Assembly: GCA_029689965.1 (NCBI GenBank)
Contig: CP121450.1
Location: forward strand, 186,001-250,000
DNA: 64,000 bases
Source of the DNA: Curtobacterium flaccumfaciens
Lineage (GTDB): Bacteria; Actinomycetota; Actinomycetes; Actinomycetales; Microbacteriaceae
Direction of reading: 5' to 3'
Part shown: piece after piece, positions 41,695 to 61,420 of the stretch
Layout: every line of letters starts with the position of its first letter
Numbering within the stretch: the first letter of the stretch is position 1
Program-made: the position numbers and the translations under genes
Notes under the pieces: model-generated
What the model saw: the letters and a program-made list of their open reading frames with translations, nothing else
Databases searched by the model: none
What the model was told of the DNA's origin: nothing

Positions 41695-42815
41695 TCACTG
41701 CTGGTGGTACGGCGCCACGACCACTTCTACTCGCTGGAACTCCTTGACGTCGGAGTATCCGGTCGTCGCCATCGACCGACGCAGGGCGCCGACGATGTTC
41801 GCGCGGCCGTCCCATGTCGGGGTCGGACCGTGCAGCACGTTCTCGAGCGGGGCGATGGTGCCGACCTCGACCCTGCGGCCGCGGGGCAGCTCAGGGTGGT
41901 GCGCCTCGGCACCCCAGTGGAAGCCACCACCGGGTGCCTCCGTCGCTCGGGCAAGCGCCGTGCCGAGCATGACGGCATCGGCGCCCATGGCGATCGCCTT
42001 GACCACGTCGCCCGCGGTGTCCAGACCGCCGTCCGCGATGACGTGCACGTACCGGCCGCCGGACTCGTCCATGTAGTCGCGGCGAGCGCCGGCGACGTCC
42101 GCGACGGCTGTGGCCATGGGGGCGTGGATGCCGAGCGCGGCGCGCGTGGTCGACGCCGCGCCGCCGCCGAAGCCGACGAGGACGCCCGCAGCACCGGTGC
42201 GCATGAGGTGCAGCGCCGCCGTGTAGGTCGAGGCGCCGCCGACGATGACCGGGACGTCGAGCTCGTAGATGAACTTCTTGAGGTTGAGCGGTTCGGTGTT
42301 CTGCGACACGTGCTCGGCCGACACCGTGGTCCCACGGATGACGAACAGGTCGACACCGGCGTCGACGACCGTCTGCGAGAACTCCTGCGTGCGCTGCGGG
42401 CTCAGGGAGCCGGCGACCGGGACCCCGGCGGCACGGATCTCGGCGAGACGGGCGCTGATCAGCTCGGCCTTGACCGGCTCGGAGTAGATCTCCTGCATGC
42501 GCTTCGTGACGTTGCCGTCGGTGAGCGTCTTGATCTCGTCGTAGTACGGAGTCGGGTCCTCGTACCGGTCCAGAGCCCCTCGAGGTCGAGCACGCCGAGC
42601 ATGCCGAGCTTGCCCATCTGGATGACCGTGGCCGGCGAGGCGACGGAGTCCATCGGCGCCGACAGGATCGGCGACTCGAACGTGAACGCGTCGATCGACC
42701 ACTGCACGCTCACGTCACGCGGGTCGCGCGTCCGCCGCGAGGGGACCACCGCGATGTCGTCGAACGCGTACGCCCGACGTCCGCGCTTGCCAGCACCGAT
42801 CTCGACTTCAGTCAC
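41695..42815 (-). CDS. GuaB3 family IMP dehydrogenase-related protein
   Basis: The TIM-barrel of the IMPDH/GMP reductase family is present (RRAYAFDDIAVVPSRRTRD, ILSAPMDSVASPATVIQMG), without CBS domains. The loop that holds the catalytic Cys in true IMPDH reads VGFGGGAASTTRAALGI here, with no Cys at that place, while the real GuaB in this window has GPGSICTTR. Its catalytic role is therefore uncertain. A missing base near 42573 breaks the frame; repaired length is 373 aa. The GTG at 42815 follows TAGGCT (42822-42827) by 6 nt, indicating a leaderless message. Upstream lies a 19-bp repeat array. Confidence 0.85.
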
Positions 42816-42875
42816 TCGGCAAGCCTACCGGTCCGGTCGCGCACGTGACCCGGGTGGGCGCGGCCGGCCCGCACC

Positions 42876-42979
42876 GTGCGAGGTGCCGCGCAGCGTGCGA
42901 GGTGCCGCGCAGCGTGCGAGGTGCCGCGCAGCGTGCGAGGTGCCGCGCAGCGTGCGAGGTGCCGCGCAGCGTGCGAGGT
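42876..42979. repeat. Tandem array, 19-bp unit, five copies plus partial
   Basis: The unit GTGCGAGGTGCCGCGCAGC is repeated perfectly at 42876, 42895, 42914, 42933 and 42952, and a partial copy starts at 42971. Inverted or lone GTGCGAG-type pieces follow near 43004 and 43055. The unit aligns with GTGCGAGACGCCGCGCTGC at 43306, so it belongs to the same family as the larger array beyond the small membrane gene. Confidence 0.9.
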
Positions 42980-43063
42980 CGCGCGGGTCGCACGGAGCGC
43001 GGAACCTCGCACAGTACGTGCCGGTGCGCGTCGCGTGCACGCAGGGGTCGCACCGTGCGAGCC

Positions 43064-43255
43064 TCAGCGCGGCGGATGTGTGCGGGCCCGGCGCTTGCGG
43101 AGGGCGCGCAGGACGAGTCCGAGCAGGAGCGCCAGCACGATCAGGACCCCGAGGAGCGCCGCGGCCACCTTCACGAGCAGGGCCGCTCCGACGAAGAGTG
43201 CGGCGAACACGAGCCAGACGAGGGCGTCGAGCACGAGGGGGCCGGGGGTACGCAC
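43064..43255 (-). CDS. Small membrane protein, 63 aa
   Basis: The intact short ORF begins VRTPGPLVLDALVWLVFAAL and has two hydrophobic helices (LVWLVFAALFVGAALLVKVA and LLGVLIVLALLLGLVL) followed by a basic tail ALRKRRARTHPPR. No family is recognised. The GTG at 43255 follows a TATCGT box (43263-43268) by 7 nt, so it is likely leaderless. The gene lies between two arrays of the same 19-bp repeat family, downstream of the liv operon and upstream of GuaB3. Confidence 0.6.
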   Translation of the reverse strand: MRTPGPLVLDALVWLVFAALFVGAALLVKVAAALLGVLIVLALLLGLVLRALRKRRARTHPPR

Positions 43256-43305
43256 GTGCGGAACGATACCGACCCTGCCGGGTCGAGCCGCGCCTCCAGG
43301 CCGGG

Positions 43306-43512
43306 TGCGAGACGCCGCGCTGCCCGCGAGACGCCGCGCGCACCGCGAGACGTCGCGGGATCCGGCGGCGTCTCGGCCGCCAGCCGGCGTCTCGGCCGCC
43401 AGCCGGCGTCTCGGCCGCCAGCCGGCGTCTCGGCCGCCAGCCGGCGTCTCGGCCGCCAGCCGGCGTCTCGGCCGCCGGGCGGTGTCTCGGCCGCCGGGCG
43501 GTGTCTCGACAC
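43306..43512. repeat. GCGAGAC/GTCTCGC repeat array (19-bp period, with inversion)
   Basis: Three direct copies of CGAGACGCCGC-type sequence (43308-43357) are followed by a turn at GGGATCCGG. Seven inverted 19-bp units then start GGCGTCTCGGCCGCCAGCC (43367-43499), the last two diverging to GGTGTCTCG and CCGGGC, and a partial copy follows. The array sits directly downstream of livF and next to a copy of the dispersed 16-mer (43288-43303). Confidence 0.9.
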
Positions 43513-43644
43513 GTGCGCGGCGTCTGCGTCCCGCACGACGCCGCCGACACATGAAAGGAGGGCCGCGCGGCGCATCAGCGACTTCGCACGACCCTCCTCG
43601 GTGCGGATGCCGCCCCCACAGCGACACCCACGTGCCGACGGGCG

Positions 43645-44450
43645 CTACCGCGCCGCGTCGACGTCCTTGGCGAGCGTTCCCAGGTACAGCTCGATGACCT
43701 TCGGGTCGTCGGCGAGCTCCTTCCCGGTACCCGAGTACGCGTTCCTCCCCTGGTCGAGCACGTACCCACGATCGCAGATCTGCAGACAGCGTCGCGCGTT
43801 CTGCTCCACCATGACGATCGACACACCGGCCTTGTTGATCCGGCGGGTGCGGATGAACGTCTCGTCCTGGCGCACCGGCGACAACCCGGCAGAGGGCTCG
43901 TCGAGCAGCAGCACCTTCGGGTCCATCATCAGCGCTCGCGCCATCGCCACGGACTGCCGCTCGCCGCCGGACAGCGATCCGGCACGCTGGCCCTTGCGCT
44001 GACCGAGGACGGGAAGAGGTCGTAGATGACCTCGAGGCGTTCGGCGAACTTCCGGGGCCGCAGGTACAGCCCCATCTGCAGGTTCTCCTCGATCGACAGC
44101 GAGGGGAAGACGTTGTTCGTCTGCGGGACGAAGCCGACGCCGGCCTGCACGAGCTTGTTCGCCCTGAGGTTCGTGATGTCCTCGCCCTGCAGCGTGACGG
44201 AACCGTCACGGATGGACACGAGGCCGAACAGCGCCTTGAGGAGCGTCGACTTGCCGGCGCCGTTCGGGCCGATGATGCCGATGAGCTCGCCCGGGTAGCA
44301 GTCGAGGTCGCAGCCGTTCAGGATGTTCACCCCCGGCAGGTAGCCGGCGACGAGGTTCTTCGCGCTGAGCACCGGCTCGCGTTCCAGCGTGGCCGCTGGG
44401 GACGGACTGGAGGCACGGCTCGCGTTCGTGGGGTCACTTGCGTCGGTCAT
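43645..44450 (-). CDS. livF: Branched-chain amino acid ABC transporter ATP-binding protein LivF
   Basis: This is the second ATPase of a Liv-type importer. Walker A is [15 protein letters not shown], signature LSGGERQ (after repair), Walker [14 protein letters not shown], and H-loop IVMVEQNAR, the LivF-specific form. An N-terminal extension ([16 protein letters not shown]) is unlike typical LivF and contains a copy of the dispersed 16-mer. A missing base near 44008 breaks the frame just before the signature; repaired length is 268 aa. The ATG at 44450 overlaps the livG stop (ATGA). It is the last gene of livHMGF. Confidence 0.93.
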
Positions 44451-47844: not shown

Positions 47845-49765
<1,921 letters not shown>

Positions 49766-49846
49766 ACACCGCGGAAGGCCTGGAGGCTCTCCACAGTTCG
49801 CCCCGAGGCGCACGTCGCCGCCGCTCGGGTCGGCAACGCTCGGCGC

Positions 49847-50745
49847 ATGCACTCGATCAACCGCGCCACCCTCGTCCGACCAGCGGGTTCTCTCCGCGAC
49901 CCGTCCGCCTGTTCCCGGGTAGTGCGGTCGAGCGATCAGACTGGCTCGCGATGACCCCGCTCGAGCGCCGACGCCTGGTCGTTCGTGCTCGCACGGATGC
50001 CGTCGGGATCGACGTCGACGGCATCGTGTCCCACCGGTCAGCCGCGGCGCTCTGGGGTCTGCCCGACTTCGACCGCGACGACGGCCGGCTGCACCTCATC
50101 GACGTCCGGCGGCCGAAGACGCACTGTGGGCCGGGCGTGGTGCGGCACGTCGGCACCCTCGGGCGGGACGAGGTCGTGCGGTTGGACGGAGTCCCGGTCA
50201 CGTCGCTGCTCCGCACGGTCGTGGACGTGATCCGATCGGTCTCGTTCGTCCACGCGATCATCGTGCTCGATCACGTGCTGCGCCTCGGTAGGCTGACGAA
50301 GCCTCAGCTGCTCGACGCCCTCGCGCCGCTGCGCGGCCTCCGTGGCAGCAGCCGGGCGATCGACGCCGTCGGGTTCGCCGACCCGCTCGCTGAATCCCCT
50401 GGCGAGTCGGCGAGTCGGGTCCAGGTCCGTGAGCTCCGGTTGCCGACCCCGGTCCTGCAACACGAGTTCGACACTCGGAACGGCCAGTACCGAGTCGACT
50501 TCTGGTGGCCGGAGCACGGGATCGTCGGCGAGTTCGACGGGCGCGTGAAGTACGACGACGCGGAGACACTCTGGCGCGAGAAGCTCCGCGAGGATGCACT
50601 CCGTCGGCACGCCTCGGTCCACGGAGTCGCCCGGTGGACGATGTCCGAGGCGGTCGATCCCGCGAAGCTCGCCACCGTCCTCATCGCCGCTGGGCTCCCG
50701 GTCCTCCGTGCTGCGCCCCGTCGCCCGTCCGCGCCTCGGGGATGA
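49847..50745 (+). CDS. DUF559 / AbiEi-like protein (putative nuclease-fold)
   Basis: MHSINRATLVR opens the protein and IVSHRSAAALWGLP is typical of AbiEi-type antitoxin/winged-helix proteins of actinobacteria. The C-terminal half reads YRVDFWWPEHGIVGEFDGR then VKYDD, the PD-(D/E)xK-like DUF559 pattern related to very-short-patch repair endonucleases. Function is unproven. One indel near 49880 separates the start from the main frame; repaired length is 299 aa. No toxin partner (AbiEii) is adjacent. GAGAC-repeat clusters border it on both sides. Confidence 0.6.
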
Positions 50746-50756
50746 TGCGGTGTTCC

Positions 50757-50880
50757 GCCGGAGCGAGACACCGTTGCCCGTCCGAGACACCGCACGCCCG
50801 CCGAGACGCCGCCGAATCCCGCGGAGTATCAGGGATCGGGCGGCGTCTCGCGCGCCGAGGGGTGTCTCGCCGCCGGGGCC
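50757..50880. repeat. GAGAC/GTCTC repeat cluster downstream of the DUF559 gene
   Basis: Three direct copies (CGAGACACCG twice, CGAGACGCCGCC) are followed by a turn near CCGCGG/GATC and two inverted copies (GCGGCGTCTCG, GGGTGTCTCG). Three GCCGGGGCC-like triplets (50875-50900) end the cluster. Confidence 0.85.
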
Positions 50881-60173: not shown

Positions 60174-61272
60174 GTCGTCCTCCGTTCGACGCTGCGGCCG
60201 ACCCGGGCGACCACCTCGTAGTTGATCGTGCCGATCGCCGCCGCCCAGTCCTCCACGGCGGGATCGCCGTTCGCCGGGTCGCCCCAGAGCACGGCCTCGT
60301 CACCGACCTGGACGTCGGCGTCGCCGATCTCGATGTGCATCGCGTTCATCGCCACGCGCCCGACGACGGGGAACGCCCGGTCACCGATCCGGACCGAGAC
60401 CCGGTTGCCGAAGTCACGGTCGAAGCCGTCGGCGTACCCGAGGCCGATGACCGCGAGCCGCGTGTCCGACTCGGCGCGCCAGGTGTAGCCGTAGCTGACG
60501 CCCTCGCCGGCGCGGACCGGGACCGTGCGCAGCACCGCGGCGGTCACCCGCATCGCCGGGCGCAGGCCGAGGTCGGCCGAGGTGCGGTCGGCGAACGGGC
60601 TGAGCCCGTAGAGCGCCAGGCCCACGCGGGCGACGTCGCGACGGGTCTCCGGCACGGCGATGCTCGCGGCACTGGCGGCGAGGTGCACCATGTCGGGCAC
60701 GATGCCGTTCGTCGCGAGGCCGTCGAGCGCCCGCTGGAGCGCTGCGTCCTGGTCGAGGTCGTCCGCTCGCGAGGCGTTCGACAGGTGCGACATGAGCCCC
60801 TCGACCCGGTCCGTCCGCCGCCACGCGCCAGGCGTCCGGCGGTCTCGAACAGCTCGGGCCACTCGGACTCGACCGCACCGTTGCGGCTGAGACCGGTGTC
60901 GACGCAGAGGTGCACGGCCGGGACCTCGGAGTCCGCCGCCGCCGACAGCTGCGACACGCTCGACACCGCCGGGGTGATGCCGTACTGCGCAGCCCGGCGG
61001 AAGTCCTCGTCGGGAGCGTGCAGCCACGCGAGGATGCGGACGCCCTCGTCGATGCCGGCCTGCCGGAGTGCGATGCCCTCGTCGATGTCCGCGACGCCGA
61101 GCCACTCCGCGCCGGCGTCCACGAACGCCTGCGCGGCCTCGGCCGCGCCGTGGCCGTACCCGTTGGCCTTGACGACCGCGATGACGCCGGACGGAGCCAC
61201 CTGCTCGGCGACCGTCGCGTAGTTGGCGATCAGCGCCTCCCGGTCGACCGTGATCCCCGTGAACGCGCTCAC
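60170..61272 (-). CDS. Alanine racemase paralogue, copy 2
   Basis: It has the same fold as its neighbour, with the PLP lysine in GVIAVVKANGYGHGAAEAAQ, CVDTGLSRNGA, and GEGVSYGYTWRAESDTRLAV as the catalytic Tyr loop. However, the GRVxMDQ motif reads VGRVAMNAMHIEIGD here, with Asn and Ala in place of Asp and Gln. It may therefore differ in activity or substrate. A missing base near 60828 breaks it; repaired length is 367 aa. The GTG at 61272 is the third of three tandem copies of the same 5' end; the preceding 25-codon mini-ORF overlaps it by GTGA. It is translated ahead of copy 1. Confidence 0.85.
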
Positions 61273-61420
61273 GACACGACCCCCTCGGCGATGAGCGGCA
61301 GCGCCGCATCCCGACGGTTGACCGTGATCCCCGTGAACGCACTCACGACACGACCCCCTCGGCGATGAGCGGCAGCGCCGCATCCCGACGGTCGACCGTG
61401 ATCCCCGTGAACGCGCTCAT
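61242..61420 (-). repeat. 74-bp tandem triplication of the alr 5' end
   Basis: The start region of the second racemase gene is present three times at 74-bp spacing (starts at 61272 GTG, 61346 GTG and 61420 ATG), almost perfectly conserved. The two upstream copies encode 25-codon mini-ORFs beginning MSAFTGITVDRRDAALPLIA, each ending in a TGA that overlaps the next GTG. A dispersed 16-mer copy follows at about 61437. Confidence 0.9.

What the first reader, a model, noticed from the sequence alone, without database searches (positions are those of the whole stretch)
43306..43512. GCGAGAC repeat array with internal inversion, 19-bp period
Direct CGAGACGCCGC copies turn at GGGATCC and become seven inverted 19-bp units. 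The direct copies align with the GuaB3-side unit (GTGCGAG-RY-GCCGCGC-W-GC), so both arrays belong to one family. The array lies just downstream of livF. It resembles a REP/terminator-like element but has no spacer variation, so it is not CRISPR. I know of no described family with this sequence.
Basis: partly seen in the sequence, partly recalled or inferred. Interest (0 to 1): 0.75.

Follow-up and report, generated by a model that had tools for sequence, protein, structure and literature searches.

The report
Phased inverted repeats ending Curtobacterium genes
The odd repeat block is real and belongs to a family of short repeat arrays, seen almost only in the bacterial genus Curtobacterium, that sit behind the ends of genes and look more like rows of docking sites for an unknown DNA-binding protein than like a folded RNA signal.

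Summary
The array is real: 3 direct and 8 (not 7) inverted copies of a 12-bp core, GCGAGACRCCGC, at 19-bp pitch, head-to-head around an 8-bp centre. The genome has 122 exact cores against 4 for the reversed pattern. The two-unit pattern occurs in 14 of 36 Curtobacterium and 0 of 23 other genomes. Arrays lie behind genes: 0 of 44 array-bearing gaps here are divergent, against 57 of 224 other gaps; in relatives 2 of 35 against 24 of 58. No RAYT/IS200 transposase was found in 60 of 60 Curtobacterium genomes. Pitch and core are kept while spacers are free. Facing halves show no clear covariation, which speaks, weakly in the near-invariant cores, against a selected RNA hairpin and for phased double-stranded sites. 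Arrays turn over fast: 8 of 10 are missing at syntenic sites of the closest genome compared. The guaB3-side array is a sister family with another core and the same pitch. Best reading (inferred): a protein-bound two-way barrier at gene 3' ends. Nearest kinds: STAR elements and REP/BIMEs; membership in REP is not met.

The parts
43307..43356 (+). direct arm: three 12-bp cores GCGAGACGCCGC / GCGAGACGCCGC / GCGAGACGTCGC at 19-bp pitch
43357..43364 (.). 8-bp centre GGGATCCG; family consensus CGGATCCG
43365..43509 (-). inverted arm: eight cores at 19-bp pitch, spacers CCGCCAG or CCGCCGG
43533..43544 (+). degenerate outlying core GCACGACGCCGC
   Evidence: 2 mismatches
43288..43299 (-). half-site of a second repeat, CTGGAGGCRCGG ('F3'), beside the array
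43555..43599 (-). livF's own stem-loop, also present in relatives that lack the array
   Evidence: the T-run scan does not score it
43645..44372 (-). livF, called in two frames (43645-43950 and 43929-44372)
43064..43255 (-). small ORF between the two arrays, no Pfam match
42870..43012 (+). sister-family ('F2') array: GTGCGAGGTGCC units at 19-bp pitch ending in a 61-bp F2 element (42952-43012)
49573..49756 (.). second F1 array in the window, behind the gene I read as guaB, centre CGGATCCC
50747..50870 (.). third F1 array, starting directly behind a 264-aa ORF (first counted core degenerate; the direct units start at 50763)

Best explanation
The array belongs to a dispersed Curtobacterium family of 3'-end elements. 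Each element is a phased row of a non-palindromic 12-bp site (GCGAGACRCCGC) repeated every 19 bp and turned head-to-head over an 8-bp centre. Shown: the architecture, the near-restriction to the genus, 3' placement, free spacers, lack of clear pairing covariation, absence of RAYT, and rapid gain and loss. Inferred: each core is a double-stranded binding site for a Curtobacterium DNA-binding protein that assembles cooperatively at just under two helical turns per unit and is mirrored at the centre. Sitting behind genes, with convergent gaps over-represented, the complex would act as a two-way roadblock or insulator that stops read-through left by the ordinary terminators. Copy number within an arm changes by slippage.
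For: Pitch: over 91 arrays there are 299 same-strand steps of exactly 19 bp (next: 38 bp, 18 times; 36 bp, 5 times), and 78 of 79 adjacent head-to-head junctions are 20 bp; 12 of 91 arrays have no adjacent junction. Head-to-head junctions 79, tail-to-tail 5. Core kept, spacer free: spacer identity 0.48 within an arm, 0.35 between arrays, random 0.30; spacer positions carry 0.02-0.56 bits. In the two arrays shared with G028, cores match 55/60 and 37/48, spacers 10/21 and 6/14. Facing halves nearly independent: 821 of 936 Watson-Crick pairs, shuffles 814 +- 5 (531 of 5000 reach it); with wobble 853, shuffles 850 (1224 reach it); centre 131 of 234, shuffles 133. Codirectional arrays read in RNA sense hold 16 G-U and 19 A-C cells, so wobble is not preferred. 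Sister family F2 has another core but the same 19-bp pitch and inversion, and its spacers do not covary (233 of 413, shuffles 232.4). Arms are equal in only 25 of 78 arrays, more sites than pairing needs. Placement; of 112 examined exact cores, 109 lie in arrays and 2 inside called genes.
Against: No binding protein was identified and no occupancy or transcript data exist here. The high information of the core positions (mostly 1-2 bits) is partly circular, because units were collected with that motif at up to 2 mismatches. The near-invariant cores give little power for a covariation test, and their small excess over shuffles (+1.4 sd) leaves room for weak pairing constraint. The fixed pitch inside an arm is partly a by-product of tandem duplication. 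Eight of ten syntenic arrays are absent in the closest genome compared, so single arrays are dispensable. The RNA of this array folds better than shuffles (z -4.1), as an inverted repeat would. The arm-length bias towards the upstream gene is weak (23 against 11 of 47, p 0.013 uncorrected), and a similar left/right imbalance (7 against 18 of 41) appears in convergent arrays where none is expected.
Confidence: 0.4

Rival explanations
1. RNA-level element: the head-to-head cores form GC-rich hairpins at mRNA 3' ends that terminate transcription or protect transcripts from exonucleases, like REP/PU elements or U-less actinobacterial terminators (the latter recalled).
For: 3' placement; the sister F2 elements start close behind stop codons (44 of 54 distances are 67 nt or less); strong predicted folding, z -4.1; small, non-significant excess of Watson-Crick pairs over shuffles in the F1 cores.
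Against: No clear covariation between facing cores, centres or F2 spacers; A-C mismatches as common as G-U in RNA sense; unequal arms; livF already has a stem-loop upstream of the array; no T-run terminator signal in 42700-43750.
Confidence: 0.3
2. Non-autonomous mobile or self-spreading repeat (MITE/REPIN-like) without a host function, kept near gene ends because insertions elsewhere are purged.
For: Empty site in G028 and G252 at livF; 8 of 10 arrays absent from G028; expansion in this genome, 122 exact cores against 2 to 53 in the other 59 genus genomes searched; an approximately 31-bp direct duplication flanks the array of L156 (read by eye).
Against: No Y1 transposase in 60 of 60 genomes (other transposase types were not searched); no fixed ends; spacers differ between arrays, so arrays are not recent pasted copies; cores better kept than spacers between the two orthologous pairs.
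Confidence: 0.25
3. Locally born tandem repeat (VNTR) with no wider meaning, or assembly artefact.
For: Several genes of the window are split over two frames; within-arm spacers are similar.
Against: Same core and pitch in 91 arrays of 14 Curtobacterium genomes (48 own, 43 from 13 others).
Confidence: 0.03

Closest known systems
STAR elements of Staphylococcus (PMC3532100; abstract, Background and Discussion read)
   Same: Short conserved core repeated in intergenic regions, spacers distinct at each locus but alike within a locus, loci differ between species, spreading mechanism and function unknown.
   Different: STAR: 14-bp core with at least 40 bp between, direct repeats. Here: 12-bp core, 7-bp spacer, head-to-head inversion over an 8-bp centre, 3'-end placement, different sequence.
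REP/BIME with RAYT (PMC2817692 and PMC3733652; passages read)
   Same: Abundant, extragenic, arranged in opposed pairs.
   Different: REP units are themselves palindromes with GTAG-type or CGTC tags, palindromy kept by complementary changes; here a unit is not a palindrome, halves do not clearly covary, no RAYT.
CGTC-tagged palindromic repeats (PMC3733652; passages read)
   Same: No dedicated transposase; head-to-head dimers; CGTC/TGTC variation recalls the R/Y site of the core.
   Different: They have an 8-9 bp stem and 4-5 nt loop inside each unit; not seen here. The word Actinobacteria does not occur in the main text of that paper.
BOX elements of Streptococcus pneumoniae (PMC3049150; search listing only; architecture recalled)
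   Same: Modular intergenic element with a variable number of an internal unit (recalled).
   Different: Different modules; recalled, not tested.

Membership tests
REP/BIME | unit is itself an imperfect palindrome | tested here: not met
   12-bp core GCGAGACRCCGC is not self-complementary; only two facing cores are (inspection)
REP/BIME | IS200/IS605-type RAYT in the genome | tested here: not met
   PF01797: 0 of 1 own genome, 0 of 60 genus genomes; the control rings in 5 of 14 named genomes
REP/BIME | palindromy maintained by complementary mutations | tested here: not met
   cores 821 of 936 against shuffles 814 +- 5 (low power), centre 131 of 234 against 133
REP/BIME | extragenic, many copies | tested here: met
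   122 exact cores; 2 of 112 examined inside called genes
CGTC-tagged REP | CGTC tag next to an 8-9 bp stem with 4-5 nt loop | tested here: not met
   CGTC/TGTC occurs inside the core but no such stem within a unit (inspection sequences)
STAR element | consensus T(G/A/T)TGTTG(G/T)GGCCC(C/A) with at least 40 bp between copies | tested here: not met
   different core and 7-bp spacers; consensus read
STAR-like kind (works like) | locus-specific spacers, loci differing between species | tested here: met
Intrinsic terminator | hairpin followed by T-run | tested here: not met
   0 found in 42700-43750
Intrinsic terminator | RNA 3' ends map there | not testable with these tools
   no transcript data
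CRISPR | unrelated spacers between constant repeats in one direct array | tested here: not met
   spacers alike within an arm, array inverted
CRISPR | cas genes | not tested
   not searched

The most novel reading that the evidence does not exclude
Curtobacterium marks gene 3' ends with phased, mirror-image arrays of sites for a still unknown oligomerising protein that blocks RNA polymerase from both sides, a bacterial counterpart of array-type protein roadblock terminators; F1 and F2 would be the sites of two such proteins (or two specificities) sharing one 19-bp geometry.
Probability: 0.25. Interest if true: 0.78.

Novelty: new variant of a known kind. Interest (0 to 1): 0.52.

Why it matters
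Well-studied bacterial intergenic repeats are mostly hairpins tied to a transposase, or repeats of unknown purpose. Here two sequence families in one genus share a rigid geometry with free spacers and no clear pairing constraint, which points to a protein that could be pulled down directly. If it stops transcription, it would be a non-hairpin, non-Rho way of ending bacterial transcripts; if not, it is a clean, fast-evolving case for how such repeats spread without a RAYT.

Tried and rejected
RAYT/IS200 origin: rejected. Rfam families: one chance microRNA match below its cut-off. Association with the 264-aa ORF beside two arrays: one copy only in the 38 own sources, so no general partner there. 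Base-paired hairpin as the selected feature: no clear covariation in F1 or F2. Presence in other genera: exact cores number 2 in 721.8 kb over 71 non-Curtobacterium guaB3 loci; de novo 10-mer enrichment, run on 41 of those 71, gave no F1 core, though GAGAC-bearing words appear once in each of 5 loci (probably orthologous sequence), and an F3-like word (CAGGAGGCGC) recurs in the Frigoribacterium/Plantibacter/Rathayibacter group. The two-unit pattern is in 0 of 23 same-order genomes and the exact head-to-head pattern in 1 of 291 other-genus family genomes. Target-site duplication: inspected by eye; nothing consistent. Transcription-direction bias of arm length: weak, not used. Literature searches for the genus, for REP in actinobacteria and for the core letters showed no description (capped lists). 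The pair-counting tool was called once with a wrong id; I relied on my own shuffle tests.

Selections to know: of 122 exact cores in the genome, 112 lie in the 38 sources examined. Array counts require at least 3 cores (own) or 2 (relatives), one of them exact; that rule dropped 5 of the 7 G353 loci fetched, all 5 convergent when checked. I left out the lone G270 site (L235), which lies inside a gene in another genus. Seven arrays with a gap side over 1000 bp were skipped in the distance count. Gene calls come from a home-made codon-usage caller; its coding fraction is 69% in the window and 86% in the G028 stretch. The background gaps come from the same array-centred stretches, not from whole genomes. 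Shared or absent was judged by eye from alignments.

Full report
OBSERVATION. The array is at 43307-43509. Three direct cores (43307, 43326, 43345) and eight inverted cores (43365 to 43498) share the 12-bp core GCGAGACRCCGC or its complement; same-strand steps are 19 bp and the turn is an 8-bp centre, GGGATCCG. Two more arrays of the same kind lie at 49573-49756 and 50747-50870.

HOST AND EXTENT. Among the best 80 loci for the window's GuaB3 piece, nine named Curtobacterium records are 92-98% identical and other genera at most 87%, so the host is a Curtobacterium. The genome (G000, 3.84 Mb; window at C1:186001-250000) has 122 exact cores against 4 for the backward pattern. In 60 genus genomes exact cores range from 2 to 122, with this genome highest and the next 53; backward controls range from 0 to 8, so the lowest genomes are at background. 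The two-unit tandem pattern occurs in 14 of 59 genomes, all 14 among the 36 of this genus, and in 0 of 23 from elsewhere in the order. The exact head-to-head pattern occurs in 4 of 8 genomes of the genus and in 1 of 291 other members of the family, the latter a lone site inside a called gene.

ARCHITECTURE. In 91 arrays (48 own in 38 sources; 43 from 13 other Curtobacterium genomes) there are 299 same-strand steps of 19 bp, and 78 of 79 adjacent centres have a 20-bp step; 12 arrays have no adjacent centre. The centre consensus is CGGATCCG with A/T favoured in the middle. Head-to-head junctions number 79, tail-to-tail 5. Core positions carry mostly 1-2 bits (the first 0.5-0.7), which is partly circular since units were gathered with the motif; spacer positions carry 0.02-0.56. 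Spacers are 48% identical within an arm, 35% between arrays and 30% at random. Arms differ in length in 53 of 78 arrays, with up to 9 units in an arm.

PLACEMENT. Counting gaps once, 44 own gaps with arrays are 15 convergent, 29 codirectional, 0 divergent; 224 other gaps over 100 bp are 34, 133 and 57 (divergent p 1e-5, convergent p 0.005). In relatives, 35 gaps are 18, 15 and 2 against 9, 25 and 24 (p 1e-4, 4e-4). Five G353 loci missed by my array rule are all convergent. In codirectional gaps the array is nearer to the upstream stop than to the downstream start in 29 of 42. At livF the array lies beyond a stem-loop (43555-43599; -33.1 kcal/mol, z -4.5) that relatives without the array also have, so it is not livF's only 3' signal.

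TURNOVER. In 30 orthologous livF-guaB3 stretches (the 30 best of 60 genomes), 7 including our own have three or more core-like matches and 23 have 0-2. The closest genomes of the 60, G028 (95% DNA identity over livF and its upstream neighbour) and G252 (93%), have an empty site in which only about 10 bp separate the livF stem-loop from the GCCTGGAGG sequence that follows the array here. Of 10 own arrays compared with the syntenic stretch of G028, 2 are shared and 8 absent. A 400-kb G028 stretch not chosen for its own hits holds 2 arrays, control 0. In the two shared arrays, cores match 55/60 and 37/48 and spacers 10/21 and 6/14: the core is held while spacers drift.

PAIRING TEST. If an RNA hairpin were selected, facing cores should covary. 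The signal is absent or very small: 821 of 936 Watson-Crick cells against 814 +- 5 in shuffles of halves among arrays (531 of 5000 reach it; with wobble 853 against 850, 1224 reach it); the variable centre gives 131 of 234 against 133. At the variable R/Y position the cells are G-C 39, A-T 9, G-T 17, A-C 13 and T-T 1 of 79. In codirectional arrays read in RNA sense, G-U cells number 16 and A-C cells 19. The cores are so conserved that this test is weak there; the centre varies enough to be informative.

SISTER FAMILY. The guaB3-side array belongs to F2: GTGCGAGGTTCC-N7-GTGCGAG-N9-CTCGCAC-N7-GGAACCTCGCAC, 61 bp, with the same 19-bp pitch and inversion. GTGCGAGGTTCCGC occurs 43 times in the genome (control 0) and in 25 of 60 genus genomes. 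Fifty-nine elements show no spacer covariation (233 of 413, shuffles 232.4 +- 7.8; the inner core part is below its shuffles, 331 of 413 against 343.7). Of 59, 2 lie inside called genes; the other 57 are 27 convergent, 27 codirectional and 3 divergent against 19, 95 and 44 of 158 other gaps.

MECHANISM. Shown: a fixed-pitch, mirror-symmetric row of non-palindromic sites, behind genes, core-conserved, spacer-free, without clear pairing covariation, without RAYT. Inferred from these: a sequence-specific protein that assembles along the DNA at 19 bp per unit. Inferred further, and least certain: it acts as a two-way transcription barrier. An RNA hairpin role and a selfish-repeat origin remain open, and the last can be true alongside either function.

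KNOWN KINDS. STAR elements (PMC3532100; abstract, Background and Discussion read) are the nearest in behaviour: locus-specific spacers, loci differing between species, unknown spreading mechanism and function. REP/BIMEs (passages of PMC2817692 and PMC3733652) fail on unit palindromy, RAYT and complementary change. In a 2025 survey of REP sequences in bacteria and archaea (PMC12306157, term search of the main text) the words Curtobacterium and Microbacteri- do not occur.

Noticed in passing
genome-wide; half-site at window 43288-43299: A third repeat, F3 = CTGGAGGCRCGG-N12-CCGYGCCTCCAG or single halves, sits in the same gap as 34 of 48 own F1 arrays, against 14 of 34 convergent and 27 of 133 codirectional gaps without arrays; in relatives 17 of 43 against 0 of 9 and 5 of 25. 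In L028 and L047 an F3 palindrome lies between two F1 arrays. Words of it head the intergenic 10-mers of G028, but single-site hits have a high background: 91 against 50 for the reversed motif, 38 of the 91 inside genes.
   Followed up: partly
window 49573-50870: A 264-aa ORF without Pfam match is flanked by F1 arrays on both sides; arrays and ORF are absent from the syntenic G028 stretch, like a cassette.
   Followed up: partly
window 41695-44372 and others: livF and guaB3 are split over two frames and the genome is scored 65.5% complete: perhaps sequencing errors, so unit counts in this assembly may also be off.
   Followed up: no
L156 (and, less well, L162), livF downstream: An approximately 31-bp direct duplication containing the GGCCMGGAGGCGCGG word flanks the F1 array in L156: a possible insertion scar or recombination between F3 copies.
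   Followed up: no
own loci, e.g. window 49578-49600: A recurrent small hairpin, GTCTCGTCTC-N3-6-GAGACGAGAC, occurs 7 times in the 38 own sources, 6 of them within 120 bp of an F1 core.
   Followed up: partly
window 47975-48010: An 18-bp tandem repeat GGTGTCTCGACCACTTCA lies just upstream of the gene I read as guaB.
   Followed up: no
window 61241-61419: A 74-bp unit repeated 2.4 times at 96% match.
   Followed up: no
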